A DNA stretch of 64,000 nt from Phototrophicus methaneseepsis. Lineage in GTDB: Bacteria; Chloroflexota; Anaerolineae; Aggregatilineales; Phototrophicaceae. Shown here in pieces: positions 29,967 to 48,700 of this stretch. Within the stretch, counting starts at the first letter, position 1. Each line of letters starts with the position of its first letter. A program made the translations under genes and the position numbers. Under the pieces are notes generated by a model that worked only from the letters and a program-made list of their open reading frames with translations, ran no database searches and was not told the origin of the DNA. The DNA is taken from positions 1,798,001-1,862,000 of the forward strand of contig NZ_CP062983.1 of NCBI RefSeq assembly GCF_015500095.1. The letters run 5' to 3'.

Positions 29967-30410
29967 CTAGTCGTCACGATCTGCATCGCGGCAGGCGTCA
30001 CATTGGGCGAAGAACTCCAGCATATGGCCCGTGATATGGACGTGGTATTTTTCCGCCAGGTGTTGGCTGAGTTTTTCCAGCCCGCAGTCCTCAAATTCAA
30101 TGACGCGGTTGCATGTGGTGCAGATGATATGGTGATGATGCCCACCTTCCATCAGCACGTAGTTGGGTGTGACGCTGCTATCGATGAAGGTTGGCCGTAC
30201 AATGCTCAGTCGCGTTAATAAATCCAACGTACGAAAGACGCTGGCCCGCCCGATGCTCTCATCACGCGCCGCGACAGCATCCAGCACTTCGCCTGATGTA
30301 ATATGACCGCCGCTTTCCGCCAGCACATCGAGGACAGTCAGGCGAGCATTGGTGAGCTTGTATCCAGCTTTTTTGAGCCGATTGGCGTAAGGGGTTGCAA
30401 TTCCTGGCAT
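29967..30410 (-). CDS. Fur family metal-dependent transcriptional regulator
   Basis: The 147-residue protein has the Fur winged helix (LKKAGYKLTNARLTVLDVLAESGGHITSGEVLDAV...IGRASVFRTLDLLTRLSIVRP). The dimerisation domain has the metal-binding HHHHIICTTCNRVIEFEDC and the C-terminal FAQCDACRD cysteine pair of the structural zinc site. Fur-like repressors sense Fe, Zn, Mn or peroxide. The GHHHHIICTTC arrangement fits Fur or Zur and does not decide between them. AAGGA ten bases upstream supports ATG 30410 over TTG 30434. No obvious metal transporter is adjacent, so its targets lie elsewhere. Confidence 0.92.
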   Translation of the reverse strand: MPGIATPYANRLKKAGYKLTNARLTVLDVLAESGGHITSGEVLDAVAARDESIGRASVFRTLDLLTRLSIVRPTFIDSSVTPNYVLMEGGHHHHIICTTCNRVIEFEDCGLEKLSQHLAEKYHVHITGHMLEFFAQCDACRDADRDD

Positions 30411-30655
30411 TGCCTGTTTATTCCTTAAGATCAATCATCCCCATGCTGCACAGTGTGTATGATGCGATGCTGAGATGGGCGCAGATGGACAACGATCTCT
30501 TACTCTTTAGCGTTTGTGACATTATGGCAGGCACAACAAGCATCGCGCAAGTGTTATCGGGTGGTTAGGCCACAATCATAGGGTGCATTCAATCAGGGCG
30601 GCCCTAACTGTGTCGGCTGTATGTTCGCGATGCGCTGTATATCAGCAATGCGATG

Positions 30656-30677
30656 AGGGGCATGAGAGCATGCCCCT
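30656..30677 (-). terminator. Hairpin past the oxidoreductase gene
   Basis: AGGGGCATG (30656-30664) pairs with CATGCCCCT (30669-30677) around AGAG, 23 bp beyond the stop at 30700. No T-run follows on the minus strand, so it may be a weak terminator or a transcript-end stabiliser. Confidence 0.45.
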
Positions 30678-30699
30678 GACCATATTTTATCTTCGGAGC

Positions 30700-31677
30700 T
30701 TACAGCGATTCGCGGGCGGATTTCAGCAGGGCATCAATGACCAGCATATTGGCGACACCATCCTGACCCGGATAGCGCGGGGCACGGTCGGAGAGGATCG
30801 CGTCCGCGAAGTCTTCGGCCATGACGGTATACTGGTTGGCCGCGGGTAGGGTCACAATATCCTGTTTGCCATCACGCCATAACTGGATGACGGTGGGTTG
30901 GTCTGCCGCTGGGACGAAGGACGTCTCTACGAGCAAACGTCCGGCTGTGCCGCTGATTTCGTACCAGTTGCGCCCATAGGTGCGCAGGCTGGCATCCAGG
31001 TGCCCTGTAATGCCAGAGGGGAACCCCAGCACGCCGACAATGCGCTCATCCACGCCTGTTTCACTGCCGAATCGGGCAATGGCTTTGCAGGTGTCGGGTT
31101 CTTCTCCGGTGATATGGCGCATGATGTTAATACAATAACAGCCCACATCCATCAGTGCACCACCTGCCAGCTCCGCACTCAGGCGGATATTGTCCTCGCT
31201 GGCAATGTTAAAGCTGAACGCAGATGCGATCATATGCACATCACCCACAACGCCATCATCAATGAGTTCTTTGACCTTTTGTGTGCGCGGGTGGAAGCGA
31301 TACATGAAAGCTTCTGCAAATTTGATGTTGCGTTCTGCAAAGGCATTGACCATTGTCTGGGCTTCTGCGGCTGTGCTGGCGAGGGGCTTTTCGCACAGGG
31401 TGGGCTTGCCTGCTTCTGCACAGGCGATGCTCCATTTGGCGTGTTTGCTGTTGGGCAGTGGGTTATAGATGGCGTCAATATCATCTGCGGCGATGAGTTC
31501 TTCGTAGCTGCCATAGGCTTTAGGGATGCCCAATTCGTCAGCTACAGCCTGGGCACGTCCCAGATCACGGCTGGCAATGGCGGCGACTTCGCCATTGCTG
31601 GATTGCTGAATCGCCGGAATCACGCGCTTGATGCCGATATTCGCGGTGCTGATGATACCCCAACGGATTTTGCTCAT
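30700..31677 (-). CDS. Gfo/Idh/MocA family oxidoreductase
   Basis: The 325-residue protein has the Rossmann start IRWGIISTANIGIKRVIPAIQ, IASRDLGRAQAVADELGI, the family motif DDIDAIYNPLPNSKHAKWSIACAEAGKPTLCEKPLA with the catalytic EKP lysine, and AFMYRFHPRTQKVKELI. The C-terminal half is the sugar-binding alpha/beta domain (ALMDVGCYCINIMRHI). The family oxidises sugars, inositols or their phosphates with NAD(P). This one resembles glucose-fructose oxidoreductase-like or dihydrodiol-dehydrogenase-like enzymes, but the substrate is open. AAAGG lies before the ATG. Confidence 0.93.
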   Translation of the reverse strand: MSKIRWGIISTANIGIKRVIPAIQQSSNGEVAAIASRDLGRAQAVADELGIPKAYGSYEELIAADDIDAIYNPLPNSKHAKWSIACAEAGKPTLCEKPLASTAAEAQTMVNAFAERNIKFAEAFMYRFHPRTQKVKELIDDGVVGDVHMIASAFSFNIASEDNIRLSAELAGGALMDVGCYCINIMRHITGEEPDTCKAIARFGSETGVDERIVGVLGFPSGITGHLDASLRTYGRNWYEISGTAGRLLVETSFVPAADQPTVIQLWRDGKQDIVTLPAANQYTVMAEDFADAILSDRAPRYPGQDGVANMLVIDALLKSARESL

Positions 31678-31798
31678 AGGGTGCCTTTCTGGATTCGTGT
31701 CAGTCTATTTCTAGCTATTAACTGTACCCTATCTGCGGAAAATTGGTCATGAGCGTGTAATAAATGGTATCCGAAGCGGATTTTAGGGGGCATCCATT

Positions 31799-32002
31799 AT
31801 GCCAGTTTCTCAAGAGTCAGCGTATAAACCCAAACGTAAGAACGGTCGCTCTGCCCGGATGATATGGGCTATTATGGGCGTGAGCTTTATCTTGCTATTG
31901 GGCGTCTTTTTGATGTCGCAGGTGCTCGTTGTCGCGCATCCTGATCTGCCACCGCCGACCGCCATCAGCCTGCCGACCCCAAAACCCACCATGACACCGT
32001 AG
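31799..32002 (+). CDS. Small single-pass membrane protein
   Basis: The 67-residue protein has a basic cytosolic start (about 1-20, KPKRKNGRSAR), one membrane helix (about 21-46, MIWAIMGVSFILLLGVFLMSQVLVV) and a Pro/Thr-rich outside tail (PPPTAISLPTPKPTMTP). AGGGGG lies ten bases before the ATG, which supports expression. I know no family for it. It may be a small anchor or regulator for the glycosyltransferase gene that follows 168 bp later, but that is only a guess from position. Confidence 0.6.
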   Translation: MPVSQESAYKPKRKNGRSARMIWAIMGVSFILLLGVFLMSQVLVVAHPDLPPPTAISLPTPKPTMTP

Positions 32003-32170
32003 GGCAATCGCTAGCCTACGTGAGTCCGCTGATCAGAGACGTACTCGCGTTACCTATTGAGAAATGAGTCAGTCGAGACTATAACAGGCGCTCTGGCACC
32101 GTGATTTGATGCTTGTCAAATTTGAATGTTGCCTTTGTCGATTATGTTTGTCTGTTAAAGAGACTGTCTC

Positions 32171-33373
32171 ATGAAATTGCTCTTCGTCGTCTCCTCGCTC
32201 GACCTGACCCAGCCCTTTAGCGCGACCCCTGCCTGGTGGCAACTGTTGAAGGGCCTCTACGAAATTGGCGTGGAGGTTATCGCAGCGCCCTATCAAGGGC
32301 CGGCGATAGAATCGCTGTGGTGGCGTGCAGCGGATAACCCGGCCAAGTGGCAGGGCGATGCTTTTAAATCGGCACGCGATTGGATGCGTCGTATTGCGCC
32401 AGATCGCCAGACGCAGATGAGCGATACAACCCCTGCCGATGAATCACAGACAGAATCCACCAGCGCGAAGCTTGTACGCCAGACAGCCCAGAAGTTCATT
32501 GCGCCGTTGTGGCTGAACCATATTGATACCTTGCTCACGAAAGAGCCGGATATTGATGCTGTCATCTTCCTGACGATTCCACTGAACCAACTCAACGGCG
32601 TGCCAGAAGCGCTCATCGCCAAACACAAGAAGCCTATTTTCTACTTCGACGGTGATGTGCCCGCCAGCTTGCCCAATATGCGCGGCTTCGCAACCGGGTT
32701 TCGCATTTATCAGGGCGCTAATCTGGATGAATACACCGCTTTCATCAGCAACAGCAAAGGCGGTGAGGACTTGCTAAAACAGCTCGGCGCGCGCGAAGCG
32801 CATACCGTCTGGTATGGGGCAGACCCGGACGTCTTCGCGCCAATTGATGTGCCTGAACAGGACCTGGATGTGATGTTTTATGGGCACGGGCGCGAGTATC
32901 GCGGTGAATGGATTGACGCGATGATCCGTGATGCTTCTAACGCACTGCCGGACGCTAAGTTTGCCGTTCGTGGCACTCGGTTGGGGGATATTGGCCGCAC
33001 ACAGCAGTTACCGTATCTCAGCTTTAGCAAACTGCGCGAATATGCCTGCCGCAGTAAGATCAATTTGTGCATCACGCGTGGTGCTCACGCCAGCCTGTAC
33101 GCTTCGGCGTCTTCGCGGCCTTTTGAACTCAGTTCTATGCAGTGCTGTGTGGTCGCCAACCCTTATAACGGCCTGGAATTGTGGTTCGAGCCGGAAAAAG
33201 AGATCATTATCGTCAATAGTGCTGAAGAAGCACTGGAGCGCTATACGTTCCTGCTCAGCCACGATGCCGAGCGCCAACGCATGGCCCAGGCTGCTCGTGA
33301 GCGCGTCCTCAAAGAGCATACCTTCCGCCATCGTGCCCATGATCTGGTGAACATCATACAGGGTTATCTATAG
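32171..33373 (+). CDS. CgeB-like glycosyltransferase (GT-B)
   Basis: The 400-residue protein has a short Rossmann start (MKLLFVVSSLDL). An unusual N-terminal domain of about 150 residues follows, with AVIFLTIPLNQLNGVPEALIAKHKKPIFYFDGDVPASLPN. The C-terminal donor domain has FISNSKGGEDLLKQLGAREAHTVWYGADPDVFAP, DLDVMFYGHGREYRGEWIDAMI, and RPFELSSMQCCVVANPYNGLELWFEPEKEIIIVNSAEEALE. The latter is the nucleotide-sugar site of CgeB-type transferases. It ends with the common ARERVLKEHTFRHRAHDLV helix. The sugar and acceptor are unknown. Confidence 0.85.
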   Translation: MKLLFVVSSLDLTQPFSATPAWWQLLKGLYEIGVEVIAAPYQGPAIESLWWRAADNPAKWQGDAFKSARDWMRRIAPDRQTQMSDTTPADESQTESTSAKLVRQTAQKFIAPLWLNHIDTLLTKEPDIDAVIFLTIPLNQLNGVPEALIAKHKKPIFYFDGDVPASLPNMRGFATGFRIYQGANLDEYTAFISNSKGGEDLLKQLGAREAHTVWYGADPDVFAPIDVPEQDLDVMFYGHGREYRGEWIDAMIRDASNALPDAKFAVRGTRLGDIGRTQQLPYLSFSKLREYACRSKINLCITRGAHASLYASASSRPFELSSMQCCVVANPYNGLELWFEPEKEIIIVNSAEEALERYTFLLSHDAERQRMAQAARERVLKEHTFRHRAHDLVNIIQGYL

Positions 33374-33485
33374 GGCGTTGTTCCATAGGGCATTGTGTGA
33401 ATAGATGGTGTGAATAGAGAGAAATAAGGACTCCTAGCGTTACACACTGGCGAGCAGTTTTAGCGCTCGATTTTAGGCGCTGTCT

Positions 33486-34043
33486 TTAAATCATGCTGCC
33501 CGGTTGGATGGGTGTGGGGGTAGATGGCATTAGCAGGTGATTCACCAGGGGCAGTACGAATAGCAAAATCAATCCGGCGATGATCATCAGCGCGATAATG
33601 AGCCAGATAACCCGGCGGCGCGTCCAGCGTGGTTCGGCTGGCAGGCGCTCATCTTCCGGTATGTAAGGCTCGTGATAGAGGACGAAATCGCCATTTTCTT
33701 GTGCGAAGTGCTCGGCATAGGCATGTTCGTCCTGATAGCCTTCTTCGTACCCCTCGCTGTAGCCTTCACCATAGCCCTCATCGCTATAGTTTTCATCGCT
33801 GTAACCCTCGTCATAAAAAGTGCCCTGTTCAAAGGCTTCCTGGTCATAGTCCTCGCCATAATCCTCTGGAGCATAGCCATCGTCATCATAAATTTCATAC
33901 GCGCTATGTTCGTAAGGCTCGCCATATGCATCATAAGCAGCGTACGAGCTATAGTCGCCTTCGTGATAATCGCCTTCATAGGCGTTATCGCTGGCATCAG
34001 GATCGATTGAGTTGTGGGTGTAAGGGGAGTGAGTGTCTTTCAT
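33486..34043 (-). CDS. Tyr/Asp/Glu/Gly-rich single-pass membrane protein
   Basis: The 185-residue protein has a long cytosolic N-terminal region (about 1-135) made almost entirely of Y, D, E, G and S, with GYSDENYSDEGYGEGYSEGY-type units. A basic stop (RWTRRR), one membrane helix (about 145-168) and a short Pro/Thr tail follow. No catalytic motif is seen. The region should be disordered and very acidic, with aromatic residues spaced every three to five positions, as in condensate-forming domains. That function is only inferred. It lies between two rightward glycosyltransferase genes on the opposite strand. Confidence 0.75.
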   Translation of the reverse strand: MKDTHSPYTHNSIDPDASDNAYEGDYHEGDYSSYAAYDAYGEPYEHSAYEIYDDDGYAPEDYGEDYDQEAFEQGTFYDEGYSDENYSDEGYGEGYSEGYEEGYQDEHAYAEHFAQENGDFVLYHEPYIPEDERLPAEPRWTRRRVIWLIIALMIIAGLILLFVLPLVNHLLMPSTPTPIQPGSMI

Positions 34044-34248
34044 GGCACAAGTATAGCAAGCAATGGCTTATGAGCAGATTAAGGATTTCGGGCGCTTGAA
34101 CGATGAAACCAGCATGTGAAAAGGGTATCATGCACCGTATGCTGAGATTATAATCTCACAAACAGAACATCGATATAGCTTTGCTGGATTTCTAGCAAAG
34201 TTCTACGAAAACGATTATTCATAGTAACCCCACGGCTTGCCTGCGCCT

Positions 34249-35367
34249 ATGCCCAATCTTTTCGTCGCCACTGGGATCTTCCACCCGGAACCAGGTGGTC
34301 CAGCGACCTACTTACACGAAATCTTGCCTGCTCTCCAATCGCGCGGTTGGGATGTTCGTTTGCAGACCTATGGCACAGGCGAGACGGACAGCTATCCTTA
34401 TCCTGTGCTGCGGGTGCCCCGGCAAACATATCCGCTCCGGCTGTTGAACTATGCGCGCGCGGCCCGTGCGTCCCTTAAGTGGGCGGATGTCGTTTACACG
34501 CATACGATTGACCTGCCGCTCATCGGCAAATCAGCCCCACGCGTGATTAAAATCGTCGGCGACCAGGCCTGGGAACGTTGTATCCGTAAGGGGTGGGTAT
34601 CGCCAGCGGAAGACATCGACACATTCCAGCATAAGAGCTATAACGGCCTTGTTGCTCAGCAAAAGCGCTCTCGTAGCAACCAGGTGCAACGGATGGACAG
34701 CGTCATTGTGCCGAGCGACTATCTCAAGCAGATGGTACAGGGATGGGGCATCCCGCCTGAGCGTATCCACGTCGTTTATAACGCGCTGCCAGCCATGCAA
34801 GATGATCGGCTGTCCCAGGTAGAGGCCAGGCAGTTACACGGGCTGGGTTATGGGCCTCTGCTGCTGGCGGCGGGTCGGCTGGAACCCTGGAAAGGGATAC
34901 AGCATATCATCGCGGCCTTAAAGCACGTGCCGGATGTGCAGTTGCTCATCGCCGGGGATGGCCCCATGCGAGAACAATGGCAAGCCATGGCACAACCCCT
35001 GGGTGCACGCGTGCAATTCTTGGGACGCTTACGCCGTAGCGTCTTGTATGAATATATGGCTGCTGCGGATTATTTCATGCTCTACAGCGGCTACGAAGGG
35101 CTGCCCCATTCCGTGCTTGAAAGTTTGCGCGTTGGGACACCTGTCATTGCCAGCCAGAAGGGCGGAAATGTAGAGGTCGTGCAGCATGGCGTTAATGGCC
35201 TGCTGGTGCCTTATGTAGATGTCAAAGCGCTGACTGCGACGATTGAAACCGCCTTTGTCACCGGGCAGCGAGCTGCTTTAGCCCAGAATGCCCATATCGA
35301 CCCGGCGCGCTTCAGCTTTGACAATATGGTCAGTCAGACGGATGCCATCCTCAAGCAGTTTGCATAA
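34249..35367 (+). CDS. Glycosyltransferase family 4
   Basis: The 372-residue GT-B protein starts MPNLFVATGIFHPEPGGPATYLHEILPALQSRGWDVRL, with the glycine loop. A middle IKIVGDQAWERCIRKGW segment follows, then the donor domain LLLAAGRLEPWKGIQHIIAALKHVPDVQLLIAGDGP and the EX7E motif YSGYEGLPHSVLESLRVGTPVIAS. It ends with the usual NGLLVPYVD binding loop. It probably adds a hexose to a polysaccharide or lipid carrier. An in-frame TTG at 34237 is four codons earlier. No clear ribosome site is seen, so leaderless or weak initiation is possible. Confidence 0.92.
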   Translation: MPNLFVATGIFHPEPGGPATYLHEILPALQSRGWDVRLQTYGTGETDSYPYPVLRVPRQTYPLRLLNYARAARASLKWADVVYTHTIDLPLIGKSAPRVIKIVGDQAWERCIRKGWVSPAEDIDTFQHKSYNGLVAQQKRSRSNQVQRMDSVIVPSDYLKQMVQGWGIPPERIHVVYNALPAMQDDRLSQVEARQLHGLGYGPLLLAAGRLEPWKGIQHIIAALKHVPDVQLLIAGDGPMREQWQAMAQPLGARVQFLGRLRRSVLYEYMAAADYFMLYSGYEGLPHSVLESLRVGTPVIASQKGGNVEVVQHGVNGLLVPYVDVKALTATIETAFVTGQRAALAQNAHIDPARFSFDNMVSQTDAILKQFA

Positions 35368-35392
35368 AGCTACAGCGAAGGGTCGTCAGGGA

Positions 35393-36232
35393 TTACTCGC
35401 CCGCGTCTGTTGTTGCTTCGACTGTTGTTTCGGTTATCGCCTCGCCTGTTGTTGGAGCTTCTCCGGCTGTCGTGGCCTCTATTGTAAATGTCGGTACGGC
35501 AATAGCGTTTGCTGTATCTTCAATATGGAACGTGACGGAATCCAAAATAGCCTGGATCTCGTCTTCAGCCGGGCCGGGGATAGCTGTCATCGGCTCTGTG
35601 TAGACGTAGAACATGAAGTTAACGCCTTCCACGTTTAACCCGGCGAACCATCCGCGCGTATCCGGCAAATCTTCCGGGCAATCGACAGCACTATAAACTG
35701 TTCCCAGGGCTGGCATGCCGCCTACAGTGTAGTTACGCTCTGTATCGGTGCCGATGTTGCATTGTGGCTCGACGATATGCTGGCGCAGTAAGCGCAGCCC
35801 ATCGGCCCATATGCTGGTTTCTGTACTGTTACCGCTGGCGATGCTGGCAAAGCCCCACAACAGCACAATGCGCGCCGTGCCCCCAGTGACCGGGCCGCCA
35901 TAAAGCGCGAACGGCAGCATTCCCACATCCGCAATTTCGTTTGAGACCAACGTGCGATATGTGGAACCCCAGCTATCCGGCAAATCAATTTCCAGCGGCG
36001 GGACGATTTCAAGGTCAATAAGCGGATCCAGCAAGGTGACGGTTGGCGTCGCGGTGACGCTGGCCGCAGTGAGGTCAATCGTCGCTGTGGGGATAGGGGG
36101 CAAGGTTGGGCGCGTATAAACGGTTGAAGTCGGTACCGGGCTTGCGGGTTGTTCTGTTGGTGCTGCGTTGCATGCTGCCAGCATCATCATAAGACAGGGC
36201 ATAAAAAACAGCTTAAAGGCAAGTCGCCACAT
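35393..36232 (-). CDS. Lipoprotein with Thr-rich tail, unknown function
   Basis: The 279-residue protein has a lipoprotein signal with lipobox LAAC near residue 21. A Pro/Thr-rich linker (about 22-75) follows, then a globular domain of about 150 residues (IVPPLEIDLPDSWGSTYRTLVSN through GPAEDEIQAILDSVTFHIEDTANA). The last 35 residues are TTAGEAPTTGE/TTVEATTDAGE repeats. The globular part resembles no enzyme I can name. It shows paired Cys residues (EPQCNIG, AVDCPED), and the surface location is clear. It stands 25 bp from the stop of the convergent glycosyltransferase gene. Confidence 0.72.
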   Translation of the reverse strand: MWRLAFKLFFMPCLMMMLAACNAAPTEQPASPVPTSTVYTRPTLPPIPTATIDLTAASVTATPTVTLLDPLIDLEIVPPLEIDLPDSWGSTYRTLVSNEIADVGMLPFALYGGPVTGGTARIVLLWGFASIASGNSTETSIWADGLRLLRQHIVEPQCNIGTDTERNYTVGGMPALGTVYSAVDCPEDLPDTRGWFAGLNVEGVNFMFYVYTEPMTAIPGPAEDEIQAILDSVTFHIEDTANAIAVPTFTIEATTAGEAPTTGEAITETTVEATTDAGE

Positions 36233-36459
36233 AACCTCTCCGTTTCTGGCCTGGGTCCATCCTTGTATCTATGCGTATTGTACTGGTGCTGTATGCATAC
36301 GGCGAGTGCTGGTTGAGGCTTTTGTTATGCCTGTTGTAATGGACGTCTGCTAAAGCCGAAATACCACCCATTATCAAACGCTATGAGGCTGTTAAGCTGC
36401 ATGTATAGAAAGCTCTGTTATGCTAGAAGCAATCTACCCATGCGGAAGAAAGGTAATGC

Positions 36460-37773
36460 ATGATAAGCATGATCAAACAGCATACAACAAGGTCCTTTGC
36501 GGCGGTGACGATGTTGATTCTGCTCTTGATGAGCACGTCTATAGCCTTCGCCCAGGATGATGTCGCGGAAGACGAAGCGACACGCGACGAGACAATTAGC
36601 GATACGCTCTACGAGCAGCTTGAGCTACTTCAGCAATTCACGAGGGAGGCGCGCGGCTTAGAGGAAAAAGGCGCTTTCCAGATTGTTTTCCCGACTCGTG
36701 CGGACCTGGCTCTATATCTTTCTGTGACATTGGAAGAAGAATTGTCGCCGGAAGTCCTGGCGGAAGAGATGGCTTTTTACAGTGCTTTCGATTTTCTACC
36801 GTCGGATTATGCGCTTTATGAAGAATATGAATCGCTCTATATGGCCCAGATTGGCGGCTTTTACGACCCTGAAACCAAAGACATGAACGTCCTGGTGCTG
36901 ACGAGTGATGAACTTGGCGATGAACTGCCTCTCTTCGAGCAGATTATCTACGTCCATGAATATACGCATACGCTGCAGGACATGAACTTCGATCTGACGA
37001 GCTACCTGGATTCAACCGATACGATGAGCACAGATGAGGCTATGGCACGCCTTGCATTGGTCGAGGGGGATGCCTCTAATATCATGAGCCTGTATACCGT
37101 CTTCATTGCGGAAGAAAACCCCTTGGCGACCCTGGCGGAGCTCTTGCTTTCCGGTATGGAAGTGGGCGGACTGACACTCCCTGCTGGCACGCCGGACATC
37201 CTGGGGGCGGAATTGTTATTCCCCTATGAAGCGGGGATGGAATTCGTCACGGCTTTATATCAGGCGGCAGGATGGGCAGGGGTGAACGATGCTTTCTCAA
37301 TGCCACCGATCTCGACTGAGCAGATTTTGCACCCGGATAAGTATCTTGAGGGCGATATGCCCCAGGAAGTGACTTTGCCGGATGTCGGTGCTTTGTTGGG
37401 TGACGATTGGCAGCTTGCCAATGAGGGCCGTATGGGAGAATTCCACTTGCAGCAGTATCTGATCACACAGATTAGCCGCAGCACCTCACGGCGAGCCGCG
37501 GCAGGTTGGGGCGGGGATGCCTATGTTATCTATGAAGATGATGCGGGTAATCAGGCCTGGGTGCTTTCTGTCGTGTGGGATAGCCCTGAAGACGAAGCCG
37601 AATTCAGAGAGGCTTATGCTGATTTTGCCATGATACGCTTCGACGAGGCGGTTGCAGATGCCCCTTGCTGGTCGGATCTTACAAGCGTGACATGCCTCTC
37701 CGTAGAAGGCACAACGCTCGTCAAAGCACCGACGTTAGAAACAGCCCTGGCCCTGTTGAACGGTGGCGCATAG
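36460..37773 (+). CDS. Secreted HExxH metallopeptidase-like protein
   Basis: The 437-residue protein has a signal peptide (residues about 10-32, ending STSIAFAQ) and a Glu/Asp-rich start. The zinc motif is IIYVHEYTHTLQD with His166, Glu167 and His170, and ALVEGDASNIM supplies a likely third ligand at Glu202, as in gluzincins. The rest is a mixed domain with a Cys pair (APCWSDLTSVTCLS). It is probably exported and may digest protein or act on surface proteins, but no substrate is known. AAAGG lies six bases before the ATG. A strong terminator follows at 37806. Confidence 0.8.
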   Translation: MISMIKQHTTRSFAAVTMLILLLMSTSIAFAQDDVAEDEATRDETISDTLYEQLELLQQFTREARGLEEKGAFQIVFPTRADLALYLSVTLEEELSPEVLAEEMAFYSAFDFLPSDYALYEEYESLYMAQIGGFYDPETKDMNVLVLTSDELGDELPLFEQIIYVHEYTHTLQDMNFDLTSYLDSTDTMSTDEAMARLALVEGDASNIMSLYTVFIAEENPLATLAELLLSGMEVGGLTLPAGTPDILGAELLFPYEAGMEFVTALYQAAGWAGVNDAFSMPPISTEQILHPDKYLEGDMPQEVTLPDVGALLGDDWQLANEGRMGEFHLQQYLITQISRSTSRRAAAGWGGDAYVIYEDDAGNQAWVLSVVWDSPEDEAEFREAYADFAMIRFDEAVADAPCWSDLTSVTCLSVEGTTLVKAPTLETALALLNGGA

Positions 37774-37805
37774 CGAAACGCACACATTTCATGATGTTGT
37801 GTATT

Positions 37806-37838
37806 AAAAAGGCCAACCTATCCAGGCTGGCCTTTTTG
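37806..37838 (+). terminator. Terminator of the secreted HExxH gene
   Basis: AAAAAGGCCA (37806-37815) pairs with TGGCCTTTTT (37828-37837), and CCT/AGG extends it inside. It sits 33 bp past the stop. Confidence 0.85.
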
Positions 37839-37969
37839 ATTGGGCGTGCTTCGGCATGCTTTTGGGATGTCGTATGCAATCAATTGGTATGCTAGCTCTC
37901 ACTTGGATGCTGCGAAATTGGGCTATCTAGGGCACAATGGGCCCCTGTATTCAGAAGGACAACGACTCC

Positions 37970-38764
37970 ATGGAACAATTACCTATACTGATCGCTATCG
38001 GCGCTGTAGCTGGTGTTTTATCGGGCATGTTTGGTATTGGCGGCGGCGCGATTATCGTACCTGCTTTGATGCTGTTTATGGGCTTCACACAGACGGCTGC
38101 AAATGGCACCTCATTGGCGGCGCTGCTGCTGCCCGTAGGTGTGTTTGGCTGCATTGAATATTATCGCAATGGCAAGCTTTACATCGGCCCTGCGCTGATG
38201 GTGGCCGTTGGCTTGCTGATTTCGACGTGGTTTGGGGCGTCCCTGGCTTTGCAACTGCCGGAGGATGTGCTCAGGGTTGGCTATGCGCTGCTGCTGCTGT
38301 TTATGGCGTGGCGCTATATTGCCCCGCGCAAATGGTACAGAGAATTACGCGGCCTGGCAGAAGAAGCTGTGATCGAAAATACGGCTTTCGATGTGCGTAG
38401 TCGGCGTGTGCTGCTGATCTGCCTTGCGACGGGCCTCGCTGCGGGCATTTTATCGGGCTTATTTGGCATTGGCGGCGGCGTGGTTATCGTTGGTGCGCTG
38501 ACGATTTTCGTCGGCTTTGACCAGAAGCTGGCAACGGGTACGTCGTTAGGCGCGCTGCTGCTGCCGGTTGGCTTACCGGGCGTCCTGCGCTACGCAGAAG
38601 CGGGGGATGTCGATTTGGGTGTGGCGGCCCCGTTAGCCTTTATGCTGTTGCTAGGGGCCTTCCTGGGCGCACGTCTGACGCTCGCCCTGCCGACTAAGAC
38701 GGTCAAGCGGCTGTATGGCTTTTTCTTGCTGGCGGTTGGTTTACGCTTCTTGCTGGTTGCATAG
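37970..38764 (+). CDS. TauE/SafE family sulfite/anion exporter
   Basis: The 264-residue protein has about eight membrane helices in two homologous halves. GVLSGMFGIGGGAIIVPALMLF and TSLAALLLPVG near the start recur as GILSGLFGIGGGVVIVGALTIF and TSLGALLLPVG in the second half, the known TauE inverted repeat. The family exports sulfite, sulfoacetate or related organosulfur compounds, or takes up small anions. The substrate is not fixed by sequence. GAAGGA lies ten bases before the ATG at 37970, and an in-frame start at 37937 is less well supported. A perfect 13-bp terminator stem follows. Confidence 0.92.
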   Translation: MEQLPILIAIGAVAGVLSGMFGIGGGAIIVPALMLFMGFTQTAANGTSLAALLLPVGVFGCIEYYRNGKLYIGPALMVAVGLLISTWFGASLALQLPEDVLRVGYALLLLFMAWRYIAPRKWYRELRGLAEEAVIENTAFDVRSRRVLLICLATGLAAGILSGLFGIGGGVVIVGALTIFVGFDQKLATGTSLGALLLPVGLPGVLRYAEAGDVDLGVAAPLAFMLLLGAFLGARLTLALPTKTVKRLYGFFLLAVGLRFLLVA

Positions 38765-38796
38765 ACTGGTGTAACGTGCACCTCAATACAGACGAT

Positions 38797-38830
38797 AAAA
38801 GGCCGCTGCTATTTGGCAGCGGCCTTTTTT
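38797..38830. terminator. Bidirectional terminator
   Basis: AAAAGGCCGCTGC (38797-38809) pairs perfectly with GCAGCGGCCTTTT (38816-38828), followed by TT. It is shared by the convergent TauE and xylose isomerase genes. Confidence 0.9.
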
Positions 38831-38852
38831 GTTCCTGATTTAGCAGATGTCT

Positions 38853-40016
38853 TTACCGGGCACCCAGCAGAATTTCGATAGTGAGCTGGTCTAGACGTTC
38901 GTAGGGCAGGTTCCGCGCGCCTAATGCCTGACGGTCGAACTCGGTGCTGCGCAGCTTGCCAACAGCCTCTTTGTTATAGACTTCGCTCAGGTAAGAGAAG
39001 GTACCATCATCGGCATTGATTTCCGCCAGCAATTCCTGAATTTCAGGGTCGGCGTTGAACTGAGCGGCTTTCTCTTTCAGGATGAGGTAGGTGCGCATGC
39101 AGCCCTTGGCGAAGTATTTCACATCTTCATAGTTGCTGCTGCGATACGCATGGGCGTCGTAGTGACGGCTGCCATCATACCCCACGTCTTCCAGGAATTT
39201 GACGAGATAGAAGGCTTGCTTAGGCATCACGCTGCCAAAGCGGAAGTCCTGGTCATAACGGCCATAAAGCTGGTCGTTGAGGTCGATATGGAACAATTTG
39301 CCTGCGTCCCATGCGGCAGCGACACCATGCACGAAGTTCAATCCGGACATATGCTCATGAGCGACTTCTGGATTGACACCAACCATCTCAGGATGATCTA
39401 AGGTAGCGATGAAACCGAGCGCTTCGCCAACTGTTGGCAGGTAGATATTGCTGCGAGGTTCATTCGGCTTGGGTTCAAGAGCGAACTTCAGGTCATAGCC
39501 CTGGTCCTGGACATATTCGCACAGGAAGTTGATGGCATCGCGGAAACGCTTGGTGGAATCCAGCGGGCTTTTAGAGCTATCTGTTTCGGTGCCTTCGCGC
39601 CCGCCCCAGAAGACATAGGTTGTCGCGCCCAGCTCAACGCCTAAATCAATGGCATTGATGGTCTTTTGCAGGGCATAGGCGCGCACGTTGGGGTCATTGC
39701 TGGTAAAAGCGCCATCTTTAAAGGCCGGATCGGTGAACAGGTTGGTGGTCGCCATCGGCACCACAAGGCCCGTTTCATCGAGGGCTTGCTTAAAATCACG
39801 CACGATCTGGTCGCGCTCGGCTGGTGTGGCATCAATCGGCACCAGGTCATTATCGTGGAAGTTCACACCCCATGCACCGACCTCTGCCAGCATATGGACG
39901 ATTTCCACCGGGGAGATGACATCACGTGTAGGATTGCCGAACGGATCACGTCCAACGTTACCCACCGTCCACAATCCAAAGGTAAACTTATGTTCAGGTT
40001 TTGGTTCGTAAGCCAT
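38853..40016 (-). CDS. xylA: Xylose isomerase
   Basis: The 387-residue protein is a class I (actinobacterial-type) xylose isomerase, converting xylose to xylulose or glucose to fructose in the cytosol. The catalytic His is in [22 protein letters not shown] and [11 protein letters not shown] hold metal ligands, and [12 protein letters not shown] and HIDLNDQ give the second metal site (His, Asp). AAGGTG lies before the ATG at 40016. The aldo/keto reductase gene lies upstream on the same strand, but a hairpin with a T-run separates them. A LacI-type operator lies further upstream. No xylulokinase is in the window. Confidence 0.95.
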
Positions 40017-40043
40017 TTTTACACCTTATGATCTAGTAACTTT

Positions 40044-40073
40044 TAAAAAATACTCACGAGGCAAGCCCCGTGC
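40044..40073 (-). terminator. Hairpin with T-run between the reductase gene and xylA
   Basis: On the minus strand CACG...CGTG with inner GGC/GCC (40055-40072) is followed by AGTATTTTTT. A second stem, GGCAGGG/CCCTGCC, lies just upstream at about 40090-40108. Together they could terminate or attenuate transcription before xylA. Confidence 0.55.
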
Positions 40074-40137
40074 CTTTAACAATGGATACAGGCAGGGATT
40101 GCCCCTGCCCGGTATATCCTGTGACTAAAATGTCTCG

Positions 40138-41073
40138 CTAACCCATGGCTTCTTCAATAGCTGCGAGATCGTCTTCATCCAGCTCCACATCGCTCCCGCC
40201 GATGATGCCATCAATCTGCGAGGGACGGCGCGCCCCGACGATAGCGGCTGTGACATTGGGATTGCTCAGCACCCAGGCAATGGCAATTGCGGGTGTAGGC
40301 ACATCGTGCTTCTGGGCGATCTCGACCATCGTATCCGCAATCGCGAGATTTTTGCTCAGCTTTGGCTCCTGGAATTCTGCATTGTTCTTGCGCCAGTCGC
40401 CCTCGGGCATATTCTCCAGGCGCTCGCGCGTCATCTTGCCCGTTAGCAGGCCAGCCTGCATGGGGGAATAGACAATCGTGCCGATGTTATTCGACCCACA
40501 GAATGGCAGGATTTCTTCTGCAACATCTGGGCGCACAGCTGAATAGGGCGGCTGTAACGAGGTGATCGGCGCAATAGCCATAGCACGTTCCATCTGTGCG
40601 ACGCTGAAGTTCGACACGCCGATATAGCGAACTTTGCCTTCTTCTTTGAGCTTTGCCAGCGTCTCCCAACCTTCTTCGATTTCTGCATCCGGGTTCGGCC
40701 AGTGGATCTGATACAGGTCAATCACATCAATTTGTAAGCGGCTGAGGCTGGCTTCAACTTCGCGCCGGAGAGAATCCGCTTTAAGCGAGCGGTCGACATT
40801 GCCATCCTCATCCCAGATGAGCGAACATTTTGTAAAAACATAGGGCTGATGGGATGTGCTCTTGAGGGCCTGGCCGACAACCGTTTCTGAGTGGCCCTGA
40901 CCATAGATGGCCGCTGTGTCGATCCAGTTCATACCTGCATCAAGCGCTTTATGGATCGTCTCAATCGAATCCTTGTCGTCTTGCGGGCCCCAACTGTCGC
41001 CGCCGATTGCCCAGGCCCCCAGGCCGATGCGCGTGATGTCCATGTCACTGTTACCAAGTTGCCGTATTTTCAT
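40138..41073 (-). CDS. Aldo/keto reductase
   Basis: The 311-residue TIM-barrel enzyme has WIDTAAIYGQGHSETVVGQAL with the catalytic Asp and Tyr, VFTKCSLIWDEDG with the Lys, and IDLYQIHWPNPD with the His. The end IAWVLSNPNVTAAIVGARRPSQIDGIIGG is the NADP(H) site. It reduces sugar aldehydes or related carbonyls. With xylA downstream, a pentose-linked role such as xylose reductase is possible but not proved. AGGAAG precedes the ATG. A LacI-type operator at 41266-41287 lies about 200 bp upstream. Confidence 0.92.
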   Translation of the reverse strand: MKIRQLGNSDMDITRIGLGAWAIGGDSWGPQDDKDSIETIHKALDAGMNWIDTAAIYGQGHSETVVGQALKSTSHQPYVFTKCSLIWDEDGNVDRSLKADSLRREVEASLSRLQIDVIDLYQIHWPNPDAEIEEGWETLAKLKEEGKVRYIGVSNFSVAQMERAMAIAPITSLQPPYSAVRPDVAEEILPFCGSNNIGTIVYSPMQAGLLTGKMTRERLENMPEGDWRKNNAEFQEPKLSKNLAIADTMVEIAQKHDVPTPAIAIAWVLSNPNVTAAIVGARRPSQIDGIIGGSDVELDEDDLAAIEEAMG

Positions 41074-41839
41074 GAAGCTTCCTAAATGCTATTGTGAGTG
41101 CTAGGGTGAGTCCGAGTCGCTTTTTTTAAGAGACCGCCCTGAAAACCGCTCCTTGAGCCCGCTTTGCAGATTCATATCAACATAGCGCCTCTATGGATAG
41201 ATCACGCATGGTTCATACTACGATATGAGCTGTATTCAGTCTTTGTAAGGCTTCTCGTCCTCGCTTGCAAACGCTTTCATGAAAGCGTAACTTGGCACAT
41301 AGAGCATGTCAAGCTATTGGCGTTGGTTGGTCCATTGGGTTGGTCCATGATGTATGCTACCCGCGTGCACCGATTGATATTAGTGAAAGACGTCATTGAA
41401 AAACATGTCTCATAGACGTTACCAGTGGACGTTACACCTTTTACACGCCATAACTCGTATGTGTATGTAAAACGCGTCGTCGATAGGTGACGGCAGCGCT
41501 TCAGTGCCATCCTGAGATATGTAGGCGCTGCGAAGGCGTTGTTTGTGTGTTTATGTTTGCGTGTTCATATGCGAGGCATTGTTGATAACGTGCCTCAGAA
41601 AAGGAATCAAAAAAGGGTACCCCAAAATGTATGTAGAAGGCCCTCTCTAGAGCTACAGCGCGAATGACGCGTCAGTAAGAAGTGAGTAACTGTTGATTTA
41701 TCGCCCGGCGTGCGCGATGATGTCCCTTCTGAGACAACCAACCTTAAGTCTGTATGAAGCTGTCTACGCTTACACTACAGAAGATAACTTAGTGTAACAG
41801 ATGGTTATGCACACGCGTGCGAACCATGTGGAGAACCTT
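41074..41839. other. 766-bp divergent intergenic region
   Basis: This is the longest gap in the window, between the leftward reductase gene and the rightward GT2 gene. It holds the LacI-type operator, a GAGGCA/TGCCTC stem at 41573-41596 and TTTTACAC/GTGTATGTAAAA words near 41430-41470. I found no tRNA, SRP RNA, RNase P or tmRNA signature and no open frame with a ribosome site. Confidence 0.5.
41266..41287. promoter_or_regulatory. LacI-family/catabolite-type operator
   Basis: TGCAAACGCTTTCA (41266-41279) fits the TGnAAnCGnTTnCA pattern of LacI/GalR repressors. It overlaps a perfect 16-bp palindrome CGCTTTCATGAAAGCG (41272-41287). It lies 193 bp upstream of the reductase ATG and so could control the reductase and xylA. 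Confidence 0.6.
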
Positions 41840-42622
41840 ATGCAAAAGATATTCGTCGTAAGCCCGACTTACAATGAAAGAGATAACCTGCCGCGCTTAG
41901 CTGCCGGCTTATTTGCTCTCGATAATCCTGGCCTTGAAATCCTGGTTGTGGATGATAATTCCCCTGATGGCACGGCGGAAGTCGCGGAGGAACTGCGAGA
42001 GAAATATGACGAAAAAGTGCACGTGCTGCGCCGTAAAGGCCCGCGTGGCTTTGCTGCCTCTTATTTTGATGGCTTCCGTCTGGCTGCGAAGATGGGTGCT
42101 GATCTCATCGTACAGATGGATGCTGATCTCTCGCATATGCCGCGTCACCTCGCCGAAATGCTGGATATGCTCAATCGTGGCAATTATGATGTCGTCATTG
42201 GCTCGCGTTATGTCTCCGGTGGTGGCGTCGATGTCGATTGGCCCTGGCATCGTAAATTCTTATCGGGGTTTGCCAACCAGGTCTATACCCCTGCTATCCT
42301 CAGCATTCCTATTCATGATACGACCAGCGGGTTTCGCGTCTGGCGGACGGAATCTCTAATGGATATGGATATTGATCGCGTGCAGTCTAATGGGTATGTC
42401 TTCGGCGTTGAGATGATTTATGCTGCCTACCGTATGGGCTATCGCATTGGTGAATCGCCTATTTACTTCCCAGATCGCCAGTATGGTAACAGCAAAATGA
42501 GCAGTTCCATCGCGATAGAAGCGGCTCTGCGCGTGTGGCAAATTTTATTCCGCTACCGCCGCCTGACCCCCGCCATGCGCAAAAAACGTTTTGCACCCCC
42601 AGTTAGCGAGACAGGCCTTTAA
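41840..42622 (+). CDS. Glycosyltransferase family 2, polyprenol-phosphate mannosyltransferase-like
   Basis: The 260-residue protein begins MQKIFVVSPTYNERDNLPRLAAGLF. It has the GT2 motifs LEILVVDDNSPDGTAEVAEEL, GFAASYFDGFRLAAKMGADLIVQMDADLSHMPRHL (DxD) and VIGSRYVSGGGVDVDWPWHRKFLS, then TTSGFRVWR. These match DPM1-like synthases that make polyprenyl-phosphate mannose from GDP-mannose on the inner membrane face. The C-terminal helices of the longer fused forms are absent. GGAG lies six bases before the ATG at 41840, deciding against the open extension to 41801. A terminator follows at 42685. Confidence 0.93.
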   Translation: MQKIFVVSPTYNERDNLPRLAAGLFALDNPGLEILVVDDNSPDGTAEVAEELREKYDEKVHVLRRKGPRGFAASYFDGFRLAAKMGADLIVQMDADLSHMPRHLAEMLDMLNRGNYDVVIGSRYVSGGGVDVDWPWHRKFLSGFANQVYTPAILSIPIHDTTSGFRVWRTESLMDMDIDRVQSNGYVFGVEMIYAAYRMGYRIGESPIYFPDRQYGNSKMSSSIAIEAALRVWQILFRYRRLTPAMRKKRFAPPVSETGL

Positions 42623-42684
42623 AGGCCATTATCAACTCAGCAACAAATATCATTGCAACAAAGATATGCTAACGAAATCATTTT

Positions 42685-42710
42685 AAGAGCGCGTTATGGC
42701 GCTCTTTTTA
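42685..42710. terminator. Terminator of the GT2 gene
   Basis: AAGAGCGC (42685-42692) pairs with GCGCTCTT (42699-42706) around GTTATG, followed by TTT. It ends seven bases before the stop of the convergent phosphatase gene and may serve both. Confidence 0.85.
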
Positions 42711-42716
42711 TGTTGC

Positions 42717-43202
42717 TTAGTCGAGATCATCCTCAATGATGGCGCCGAATATCTTCGGCGTGACCAGCCAGTGGAGCATACTGGCTCGCAAAATCTCCAG
42801 GTCGACTTCGATGCAGGCAATCGCCCCTGTTTTCATGTTGGTATTGACCCCTGTCAGTTGTTGGAGTACATCGCTCATGCTGGGGTTATGGCCCACCAGG
42901 ATGAGATCATGGTCAGGGTCTTCTTGCTCACCGAGGATTTTTTCCAGGGCCTTCAGGTCAAAGTCGAAGTTCAGGCTTTCCTGCGTGGTCACAGTCATAT
43001 TCAATGCTTCTGCAATGATGGCCGCTGTTTGTTGAGCACGCACACGCGGGCTTGCATAGATTGCGGTCGGGGTGATTTCTAATTTAGCCAGCACCTTGGC
43101 GGTACTTTTTGTGCGTTCTTCACCCTTTTGGGTGAGCGGTCGCGCATGGTCGCTATCAGCCATATTGCTGGCCTGACCATGCCGCATTAAATAGAGTTTC
43201 AT
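42717..43202 (-). CDS. Histidine phosphatase (SixA-like)
   Basis: The 161-residue protein starts MKLYLMRHGQASN with the catalytic RHG. It has SPRVRAQQTAAIIAEAL, a likely catalytic Glu within LNFDFDLKALEKI, and the second catalytic His in LILVGHNPSMSDVLQQL. Its short length and pattern match the SixA branch, which in E. coli dephosphorylates His-phosphotransfer domains or PTSNtr proteins. In this genome the target is unknown. The orphan histidine kinase at 8405 could be considered but lacks a nearby link. A start at 43220 is open but has no ribosome site. Confidence 0.9.
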   Translation of the reverse strand: MKLYLMRHGQASNMADSDHARPLTQKGEERTKSTAKVLAKLEITPTAIYASPRVRAQQTAAIIAEALNMTVTTQESLNFDFDLKALEKILGEQEDPDHDLILVGHNPSMSDVLQQLTGVNTNMKTGAIACIEVDLEILRASMLHWLVTPKIFGAIIEDDLD

Positions 43203-43280
43203 CGTCAGAATAACCCCCATCAGTTGGAAATAGATTTGTGGAAATATACTTGATTATAGCGCGAAATAGAGCCACGAAAT

Positions 43281-43306
43281 GAAAAAGGCGACCACGTAGG
43301 TCGCCT
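43281..43306 (-). terminator. Terminator of galE
   Basis: AGGCGACC (43286-43293) pairs with GGTCGCCT (43299-43306) around ACGTA. On the minus strand it is followed by TTTTT, 25 bp past the galE stop. Confidence 0.85.
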
Positions 43307-43330
43307 CTGTTTTGTATAGCTGTTGATGGC

Positions 43331-44317
43331 TTATTCTTCAAAGCCATTGGGATGCTTCTGGTGCCAATTCCAGGCTGTTTCAATGATGACATGCAGGTTA
43401 TCAAATTCTGGTGCCCATCCTAGTTCACGCTTGATACGTGTGCTATCTGCGATGAGGCGGGGCAGGTCACCAGGGCGGCGTTCTGTCTCCACAGTTGGGA
43501 TCGCATGCCCGGTCACCTGACGAGCGACTTCGACAACTTCCTTGACGCTGTATCCTGTGCCACTACCCAGGTTATAGACGCGGCTGGGACCATTGCCGAG
43601 CGCTTCTAGCGCCAGGATGTGAGCCTCCGCCAGATCCAGCACATGCACATAATCACGGACGCAGGTGCCATCCGGCGTATCATAGTCGCTTCCGTAGATA
43701 GCGAGGCTGTCACGCTGGCCCAAGGCAACCTGCAACGTGATCGGAATCAGGTGGGATTCTGGGTGATGGTCTTCGCCAATATGGCCATTGGGGTGTGCGC
43801 CGCAGGCATTGAAGTAACGCAGAGCGCAGTAACGCAGGCCATAGATGCGATCCATCCACATGAGTGTGCGTTCGGCCATGTATTTCGTCTCACCGTAAAC
43901 GCTGCCCGGCTTCAGCGGCTCGTCTTCGCTGATGGGGATGCGTTCGGGATCATCGAATAAGGCGGCTGTCGAGGAGAGAATGAAGCGTTTAACGCCGTTG
44001 GCTGTGGCGAATTCCAGCACATTCCAGATCGCGGCCATATTATCGTTGAAGTACTTAAAGGGCTTTTCCATACTTTCGCCGACGAGGATGTGCGAGGCGA
44101 AGTGCAAAATGCCTTCGAACTGATGCGCGGCAAACAGCTTTTCCAGGTCACCTTTATTGAGCAGGTCGCCGACGACCAGGGTAGCATCTTTGTGGACAGC
44201 GCTGCGGTGCCCGGCGGAGAGATTATCAAAGACGACGACTTCATAACCTTTTTCCACCAGCATTTCGACAACGTGGCTGCCGATATATCCCGCGCCTCCT
44301 GTGACCAAAACTTTCAT
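43331..44317 (-). CDS. galE: UDP-glucose 4-epimerase
   Basis: The 328-residue protein starts [41 protein letters not shown], the GalE NAD-binding signature. It has [58 protein letters not shown] (catalytic Ser and YxxxK), [21 protein letters not shown] and [19 protein letters not shown]. It interconverts UDP-glucose and UDP-galactose in the cytosol and feeds the glycosyltransferases of the window. AAAGG lies ten bases before the ATG. It has its own terminator at 43281. Confidence 0.95.
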
Positions 44318-44495
44318 GCTGTGGCTGCCTTTCTATGGGATAGATTGCTGTTCATAATCGTTTTTCGTGATTGTTTTTGTTACGGCTCTTGATATTGCTT
44401 TTAATATCGCTTGGTTTGCGCATCGGCAAACACGTCTATTCTACACCAAGTATGGGGCGATCTCTCATGAATGAGCACACTGAAAAGAAATGAAA

Positions 44496-44518
44496 AAGGG
44501 CACGCTGAACGTGCCCTT
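44496..44518 (-). terminator. Terminator of the FHA gene
   Basis: AAGGGCACG (44496-44504) pairs with CGTGCCCTT (44510-44518) around CTGAA, followed on the minus strand by TTTCATTTC. It lies 20 bp past the stop. Confidence 0.8.
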
Positions 44519-44537
44519 GTCATACATCTGGGTTCAT

Positions 44538-45395
44538 TTAACAGGTTGGCGGTAAGCCAAACGCGCTGAGGATATCTGTTAGGAATGGAATGCTATTGTA
44601 GAGGCACAACGTATCGACTGCCAGTGCAACCAGGATCGTGATACAGCAGCACAAGACCATCAAGCCAATGCAGCCATAGAGGATCCAGCGTGCTGCACCG
44701 CCGCCTTCTTCATCCCGCACAGCATAAGGGTCATAATCATAACCGGAAGGCGGTGGGCCATAAGTGCCCGGTTGCTGATAGTATGCTTGTTCCCCTGGCT
44801 GTTGGTAGCCTTGTTGATAGGGATCCTGCTGATACGCATCCTGATAGGGCGCCTGAGCGTATGAAGGCTCCTGCGGCTGCTGGTAGGATGGCTGCTGCGG
44901 CTGTTGATAAGACTGCTGAGGTGCCTGGTATGGATTTGAAGGTTGCTGTTGCTGCTGGGGTGGGCGATACGCTTCATCACCTGCAGGCCGCTGCGGTGGC
45001 TGGTAAGATTGCTGCGGCGGCTGCCCGCTGGCGCTGGGCATGGTTGCCCCGCTTGCAGCGTCTGATACCCCGCCAGCACCTTCTGGCCGGGTTAATTCAT
45101 AGCCAAGTGTGACTGTCTCACCCAGGCCAATCATATCGCCATTTTTGAGGGGAGTCGCCCCGGTAATGCGCTTGCCATTGACGAAGGTCCCATTGGTACT
45201 GCCGGAGTCTTCGATGGTATAACCGCTGGTCCCATGCGTAAAACGCAAGTGATGACGGCTGACTTCACGGTCATTAATGACAATATCATTGGTGATGTCG
45301 CGCCCCAGGTTCATAACTTCTTTACTGAGTTCATAAACCTGGTTGGGCTGCGGCCCCCTGCGGACGACCAGCCGATAGCTGTCGTTCCCCTGCAT
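44538..45395 (-). CDS. FHA-domain protein with Pro/Gln/Tyr-rich linker and membrane anchor
   Basis: With the start at 45395 the protein has 285 residues. A canonical FHA domain spans about 10-105: NLGRDITNDIVI (GRD), REVSRHHLRF, EDSGSTNGTFVNGKRI. Residues about 110-230 are disordered, with QQPSYQ/QQPQ and YQQ units. A membrane helix follows at about 242-265, just before a short tail containing Cys residues. The layout suggests a membrane-tethered phosphothreonine reader with a flexible Gln/Pro/Tyr arm. No Ser/Thr kinase is in the window. GGGAGG lies seven bases before ATG 45395; an open extension to 45443 is less likely. Confidence 0.88.
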   Translation of the reverse strand: MQGNDSYRLVVRRGPQPNQVYELSKEVMNLGRDITNDIVINDREVSRHHLRFTHGTSGYTIEDSGSTNGTFVNGKRITGATPLKNGDMIGLGETVTLGYELTRPEGAGGVSDAASGATMPSASGQPPQQSYQPPQRPAGDEAYRPPQQQQQPSNPYQAPQQSYQQPQQPSYQQPQEPSYAQAPYQDAYQQDPYQQGYQQPGEQAYYQQPGTYGPPPSGYDYDPYAVRDEEGGGAARWILYGCIGLMVLCCCITILVALAVDTLCLYNSIPFLTDILSAFGLPPTC

Positions 45396-46510: not shown

Positions 46511-46841
46511 GTTCGCTCGCTGAGCGTGTCGCTCAAGAACCTCTAGCCAGTCGAACTCGATACGGCCTACGAACCGGGGATGCTGTACAGACAGCGATCC
46601 CCGTGTTTTATTTGTGTGTACTTCCGCTTATAATCACCGTCCAGTTTGTTGTCAATTGATCGGATAGCCCGCAGTCGTACGGCTCGCGTGCATTCGTTTG
46701 AGTCAATTTGCTTTCTGATAGGGGCCATTTTTGTGTGCCCACACCGGGCCAAGAGCATGAAGGCCCGCATAGGAATTGATAGAACACGGATAACCTGATT
46801 ACCCAACCTGTACAACCCATACAGAGTAAGGAATGCCAGAA
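46511..46841. other. 331-bp gap holding a terminator and the thrS leader
   Basis: The first third carries the terminator of the preceding gene. TATAAT at 46629-46634 may be the thrS -10, although I see no good -35. This would leave a leader of about 200 nt with a GGGGCC...GGGCC stem near 46715-46760. I looked for T-box signs (AGGGTGGnACCGCG) and found none. Confidence 0.4.
46575..46610 (+). terminator. Terminator of the hypothetical gene at 46067
   Basis: CGGGGAT (46575-46581) pairs with ATCCCCG (46597-46603), and GCTGT/ACAGC extends it to 12 pairs around ACAG, followed by TGTTTTATTT. Confidence 0.85.
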
Positions 46842-48671: not shown

Positions 48672-48700
48672 GCTAAGCTTTGCCGCTTTATGCGGCTTAT

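What the first reader, a model, noticed from the sequence alone, without database searches (positions are those of the whole stretch)
33486..34043. Disordered Tyr/Asp/Glu/Gly-rich domain tethered to the membrane
About 135 residues are almost only Y, D, E, G and S with tyrosine at regular intervals, then a single membrane helix. The regular aromatic 'sticker' and acidic 'spacer' pattern resembles condensate-forming domains, which is rare for a short bacterial membrane protein. The proteins at 44538 and 48721 also carry Tyr/Gln/Glu-rich arms near membrane helices, so several of these may work together at the membrane.
Basis: partly seen in the sequence, partly recalled or inferred. Interest (0 to 1): 0.5.

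Follow-up and report, generated by a model that had tools for sequence, protein, structure and literature searches.

The report
Membrane protein with evenly spaced tyrosines
A deep-sea filamentous bacterium carries a small, so far undescribed membrane protein whose long floppy tail is acidic and studded with evenly spaced tyrosines; shorter-tailed relatives occur in many members of its bacterial family, which makes a loose docking arm at the membrane surface the likeliest role, though nothing has been tested in the laboratory.

Summary
Window 33486-34043(-) encodes 185 residues: an acidic Tyr-rich tail (23 Tyr, 42 Asp/Glu in 139), one membrane helix, a short Pro-containing end. A syntenic same-genus orthologue keeps a Tyr/Asp/Glu tail at 39 identities in 100 aligned positions. 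In both species aromatics are more evenly spaced than in shuffles.

The anchor defines an undescribed family: a profile matched 46 of 154 order genomes at E<=1e-5, all in one family, 11 of them its own sources. All 45 tails read are net acidic, median 35 residues. The long Tyr-rich tail is a genus-level elaboration, known from two species. Pfam and NCBIfam gave no credible match.

Likeliest mechanism, inferred: a cytoplasmic, disordered polyanionic-aromatic arm making many weak contacts at the membrane. Condensation is unproven; net charge near -39 opposes self-association. Phosphorylation by a Wzc-like kinase is possible. Even Tyr spacing also occurs in FHA-protein linkers (7 of 12), so it is not unique. 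The 48721 protein matches none of 40 other genomes: 'several work together' is unsupported.

The parts
33486..34043 (-). Whole ORF, 185 aa, small membrane protein with a Tyr/acid-rich N-terminal tail
33627..34043 (-). Residues 1-139: disordered acidic tail, 23 Tyr, 42 Asp/Glu, net charge -39, evenly spaced aromatics
33531..33626 (-). Residues 140-171: conserved anchor, WT-x-x-R motif followed by the membrane helix (model helix 142-171)
33489..33530 (-). Residues 172-185: short Pro-containing C-terminal end, no Lys/Arg, predicted outside the cytoplasm (inference)
34050..34058 (-). Extended -10-like element TGCTATACT, 6 bases before the ATG, inside a 16-base block identical in the sister species; suggests a leaderless transcript
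   Evidence: conservation; promoter function inferred; the consensus scan did not list it

Best explanation
A small membrane protein with its N-terminus in the cytoplasm. The conserved WTxxR helix and short Pro-rich end anchor it. The disordered acidic-aromatic tail acts as a flexible, multivalent docking arm at the inner membrane surface, making many weak contacts through aromatic side chains and negative charge with basic or aromatic partners. In Phototrophicus a short tail (family median 35 residues) has become 117-139 residues with an even run of tyrosines, raising the number of contacts. Shown by computation: the family, the anchor, tail composition, even spacing in two species, likely disorder. 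Inferred: that short is ancestral, the cytoplasmic side, multivalent docking, any partner. Whether the contacts reach condensation is left open.
For: The anchor profile matches 46 of 154 order genomes at E<=1e-5, all in family f1 and in 15 of its 24 genera; 11 of the 46 supplied the profile; outside f1 the best E is 0.0012. Tails of the 45 members read are all net negative (-1 to -39) with at least one aromatic (the script's choice of start codon favoured acidic tails). Lys/Arg is more frequent before the helix than after it in 32 of 45, equal in 11, fewer in 2, which favours a cytoplasmic N-terminus. Tail disordered in the model, helix confident. Aromatics are even in both Phototrophicus species: CV 0.482 vs 0.848 (p 0.0006) and 0.329 vs 0.845 (0 of 20,000); close pairs 1 against 9.2 and 1 against 6.0 expected; main periods 4.6 (p 0.001) and 4.85 (p 0.029). 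An Omega-aro-like measure agrees (0 of 3000; 1 of 3000). No DNA repeat was found. The tails share 39 identities over 100 aligned positions against 31 in shuffles, so composition and spacing outlast much of the exact sequence.
Against: Only two species carry the long even tail. None of 14 other members with tails of 30 or more and five or more aromatics is significantly even (lowest p 0.148; power is low with 5-12 aromatics). Real similarity remains between the two tails (score p 0.001; p 0.006 with Tyr held in place and spacers shuffled), so part of the shared spacing may be inheritance. FHA linkers of these genomes are also even in 7 of 12, so evenness may be a general habit of disordered regions here. 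No partner is known; neighbours differ between genera.
Confidence: 0.45

Rival explanations
1. Weakly constrained acidic brush: the anchor does the work, and the tail only has to be acidic, soluble and disordered. Tyr enrichment in one genus is drift within loose limits.
For: Tails vary from 19 to 139 residues and from 0 to 23 Tyr across the 45 read while the anchor is kept. Even Tyr spacing also occurs in 7 of 12 FHA linkers. None of 14 testable other members is even.
Against: Near-absence of close aromatic pairs in both species (1 against 9.2 and 1 against 6.0 expected) and low CV are hard to get by drift; Tyr-rich composition persists despite low identity.
Confidence: 0.27
2. Tyrosine-phosphorylated membrane switch: the tail is a multi-site substrate of a BY-kinase and tunes polysaccharide assembly, as the Tyr tail of Wzc does in cis.
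For: Both Phototrophicus species encode a Wzc-like frame (549 and 551 aa) with an EGKT P-loop and its own Tyr cluster at the C-terminus (layout judged by eye). The gene lies between two glycosyltransferase genes, and both are near it in the sister species. In E. [quoted passage not shown]
Against: TIGR01007 is over its cut-off in all 5 genomes searched, short-tailed ones included, and rings in all 14 control genomes (over the cut-off in 5), so co-occurrence does not discriminate. No shared acidic setting of Tyr: Asp/Glu beside Tyr is not enriched (p 0.71 and 0.16), and the enriched neighbours differ between the species. The CpsD-like protein of the genus lacks the GK[ST] P-loop. The divergent glycosyltransferase neighbour is seen in 2 of 30 loci, both of this genus. 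Tyr gaps of 3-6 differ from the close Tyr cluster of the kinase itself.
Confidence: 0.15
3. Membrane-tethered condensate scaffold in the strict sense: Tyr stickers and acidic spacers phase-separate on the inner membrane face.
For: Even aromatic patterning; uniformly spaced tyrosine stickers are described for RNA polymerase II CTD phase separation (PMC11502803, abstract and passages seen); Tyr is essential for Lge1 condensates (PMC10406433, passages seen).
Against: Net charge per residue -0.28 and -0.33 with 2-3% Lys/Arg in the tail: mutual repulsion and almost no Arg in cis. It would need cations or a basic partner; none is identified. Lge1 condenses although its Tyr patterning is reported as non-uniform (Omega-aro 0.47, p 0.57), so evenness is neither required nor diagnostic.
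Confidence: 0.1
4. Reverse topology: the tail is outside and binds metal ions or cross-links through tyrosines.
For: Acid and Tyr side chains can bind metals (general knowledge); no direct evidence here.
Against: No N-terminal hydrophobic stretch in the sequence (by eye; no signal-peptide program was run); five Lys/Arg just before the helix and none after it.
Confidence: 0.03

Closest known systems
Tyr-rich C-terminal tail of BY-kinases (Wzc / CapB / CpsD)
   Same: Tyr-rich cytoplasmic segment attached to a membrane protein
   Different: No kinase domain here; the tail precedes the helix; Tyr gaps mostly 3-6 over more than 100 residues rather than a short cluster
RNA polymerase II CTD (uniformly spaced Tyr stickers)
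   Same: Disordered, evenly spaced Tyr separated by short spacers
   Different: Ser/Pro/Thr heptads instead of acidic spacers; not membrane-bound; likeness of layout only, no sequence comparison made
FHA-linker-helix protein of the same genomes (window 44538-45443)
   Same: Disordered Tyr-rich segment next to a single membrane helix; even Tyr in 7 of 12 orthologues
   Different: Pro/Gln-rich rather than acidic, carries an FHA domain, matched in 40 of 41 genomes; anchor similarity not tested
Unnamed second small family (L109, L107, L108; also G054): acidic-aromatic tail plus FWTxxR helix, no Pro end
   Same: Same layout and a similar juxtamembrane motif; weak profile matches, E 4.8e-6 to 0.003
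   Different: Short tail with its own shared pattern, no Pro-rich end, no match in this genome

Membership tests
Acidic-tail WTxxR anchor family defined here (Phototrophicaceae by inference) | Anchor profile A2 match with E<=1e-5 | tested here: met
   E 3.8e-23; circular in part, since the window protein is one of the 11 rows of A2. 35 of the 46 matching genomes did not supply a row. BLAST with the window protein alone had given E 8e-14 to 2e-4 in 8 other genomes.
Acidic-tail WTxxR anchor family defined here (Phototrophicaceae by inference) | Net acidic tail before the helix and Pro-containing end after it | tested here: met
BY-kinase / Wzc | Kinase domain with Walker motifs | tested here: not met
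   No Pfam match of the window protein up to E 1; no GK[ST] in the 185 residues
Prion-like / sticker-spacer phase-separating domain | Evenly patterned aromatic residues | tested here: met
   not a strict requirement, see Lge1
Prion-like / sticker-spacer phase-separating domain | Low net charge per residue (defining status recalled) | tested here: not met
   -0.281
Prion-like / sticker-spacer phase-separating domain | Phase separation shown | not testable with these tools
   needs purified protein or live imaging
Divisome protein SepX/GlpR (NF045516) | Score above the curated cut-off of 160 bits | tested here: not met
   13.3 bits, E 0.055

The most novel reading that the evidence does not exclude
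A bacterial membrane-tethered, phospho-tunable Tyr sticker array: evenly spaced tyrosines in an acidic disordered arm gather basic partners at the inner membrane, and a Wzc-like kinase loosens the assembly by phosphorylating them.
Probability: 0.06. Interest if true: 0.75.

Novelty: new variant of a known kind. Interest (0 to 1): 0.4.

Why it matters
It gives a small, testable bacterial case in which aromatic spacing in a disordered region appears to be kept while much of the sequence changes, with short-tailed relatives on the same anchor as natural controls. If the tail works by multivalent Tyr contacts, the sticker idea could be tested at a bacterial membrane. It also points to a protein family of Chloroflexota for which Pfam and NCBIfam gave no credible match.

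Tried and rejected
Repeat expansion as the cause of even spacing: no tandem repeat found and no excess codon identity beyond what 30 comparisons would give (lowest p 0.01); rejected for recent expansion, not for an ancient one.

Operon partner: neighbours differ: glycosyltransferase in 2 of 30 loci, sdhB type protein in 5 of 30, an unnamed 242-aa protein in 4 of 30, a PIG-L type deacetylase in 2 of 30 (loci of about 1.5 kb each side, so lower bounds; Pfam on one example each of sdhB and PIG-L). The 242-aa protein has a match in 10 of 10 genomes searched but lies about 58 kb away here. No partner inferred.

Divergent tail protein beside the downstream glycosyltransferase in other genera: 2 of 30 loci examined, both of this genus; 30 of the 50 genomes with a match had a locus, and some loci are cut by contig ends.

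More Phototrophicus orthologues in genome contigs: two scans, none confirmed. RNA families in 30000-50000: none. Solved structures: two hits only, a designed protein (E 0.0038) and a short Pep12p chain (E 0.041), taken as chance. Pfam and NCBIfam on 11 members: 16 and 13 families with scattered weak matches, best E 0.0099 and 0.018, taken as chance. PHROGs and PADLOC were not searched. Kinase patterns were too strict and printed nothing; a looser one showed L130 and L134, and one search printed L132 and L133. Literature searches for a comparable bacterial protein: one search returned 0 papers; two searches gave 12 listed of 82 and 1 paper, none on this by title and start of abstract.

Full report
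What is there. The minus-strand ORF at 33486-34043 encodes 185 residues. Residues 1-139 hold 23 Tyr and 42 Asp/Glu and about 2% Lys/Arg; then come a WTRRR motif, one membrane helix and a short Pro-containing end. The window lies in a single-contig genome of 5,631,885 bases, exactly the size given for Phototrophicus methaneseepsis ZRK33 (PMC8941918, passages seen), a filamentous deep-sea bacterium; NCBI taxonomy places the species in Chloroflexota, Phototrophicaceae. That the tools' family f1 is Phototrophicaceae is inference.

Is it more than chance? Among 383 ORFs of at least 100 aa in 464 kb of this genome it has the most Tyr in any 100 residues and the most Y+D+E+G. These ORFs were called by a simple script, and the sample is about 8% of the genome. 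Aromatic gaps are more even than in shuffles: CV 0.482 against 0.848, p 0.0006; Tyr alone p 0.019. That the gene is real is supported by an orthologue in frame, by third-position-biased changes in the anchor (14/6/28 over 46 codons) and by a 16-base upstream block, TTGCTTGCTATACTTG, identical in the sister species while 78 of 129 aligned positions further upstream agree. TATACT lies 6 bases before the ATG (7 in the sister), which suggests a leaderless transcript; this is inference, and the general consensus scan did not list it.

Orthologue. The same-genus genome G001 has the gene in the same place: divergent from the downstream glycosyltransferase (68% identity) and near the same lipoprotein; the other glycosyltransferase (81%) is also near, with a 479-aa ORF in between. 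Its tail has 18 Tyr in 117 residues. Aligned tails share 39 identities over 100 positions against 31 in shuffles, and the score beats shuffles (p 0.001; p 0.006 with Tyr held in place), so real homology persists in the tail. Spacing is even in G001 too: 0 of 20,000 shuffles as even; main periods are 4.6 (p 0.001) and 4.85 (p 0.029). The gap series themselves differ.

The wider family. A profile of the last 60-70 residues from 11 genomes matched 46 of 154 order genomes at E<=1e-5, all in family f1 and in 15 of its 24 genera; outside f1 the best E was 0.0012. Eleven of the 46 had supplied the profile, so 35 are independent. I read 45 tails from the 47 genomes at E<=1.6e-5; two were dropped for stops in the frame. 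All were net negative, median length 35. The start codon was chosen by a rule that favours acidic tails. The Phototrophicus tails are outliers: next longest are 96, 80 and 77 residues, and the next Tyr count is 7. None of 14 other members with enough aromatics was significantly even (low power). So the regular Tyr pattern looks like a genus-level elaboration of a shorter acidic tail. A glycosyltransferase tree joined the two species (100/100); 8 of its 27 inner branches were drawn open.

A control that weakens uniqueness. Tyr-rich linkers of the FHA protein (44538-45443 and 11 orthologues) are also evenly spaced in 7 of 12 at p<0.05, though close pairs are not significantly avoided there. Even Tyr spacing may therefore be common in disordered regions of these bacteria.

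How it may work. Lys/Arg before the helix outnumber those after it in 32 of 45 members, tie in 11 and are fewer in 2, so the tail is probably cytoplasmic. A disordered, highly acidic arm with even aromatics suggests many weak contacts with basic or aromatic partners at the membrane. Strict self-condensation is disfavoured by charge, and Lge1 shows that condensates can form without even Tyr patterning (PMC10406433, passages). Phosphorylation is possible: Wzc-like frames with an EGKT motif and Tyr-rich ends exist in both species, but TIGR01007 matches exist in all five genomes searched and in the controls, and Tyr has no shared acidic neighbourhood in the two tails.

Known families. No credible Pfam or NCBIfam match (the NCBIfam scores of the window protein lie far below cut-offs) and no convincing solved relative. 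I file it as an undescribed small membrane protein family and a new variant of the known kind 'membrane protein with a disordered multivalent tail'. 'Undescribed' rests on these libraries and on literature searches only.

Noticed in passing
L132 and L133 (G000:C1:2769529-2770125; G001:C2:71244-71840): CpsD-like proteins of both Phototrophicus species lack the GK[ST] P-loop (ADDKS, ADEKS) seen as SEGKS in G009 and G022, and end in a single Tyr: possible dead kinases. A further Wzc-like frame in G000 (L154) reads NEGRT at that place.
   Followed up: partly
L109:1977-2198 (also L107, L108, and G054): A second small family with an acidic-aromatic tail and an FWTxxR helix but no Pro-rich end; in 3 of 41 family genomes searched with it, its source included, not in G000.
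   Followed up: partly
window 44538-45443: FHA protein with a Pro/Gln/Tyr linker; a juxtamembrane motif [DE]YDPYA[VIM]R is present in 9 of the 12 orthologues read.
   Followed up: partly
L023:6984-7712: Unnamed 242-aa protein without Pfam match, next to the family member in 4 of 30 loci and matched in 10 of 10 genomes searched.
   Followed up: partly
window 48721-49167: Protein with apparent membrane helices and a Tyr/Glu/Gln-rich C-terminal arm; no match in 40 other family genomes, sister species included.
   Followed up: yes
window 34050-34058: Conserved TGCTATACT just before the ATG, suggesting leaderless transcription.
   Followed up: partly
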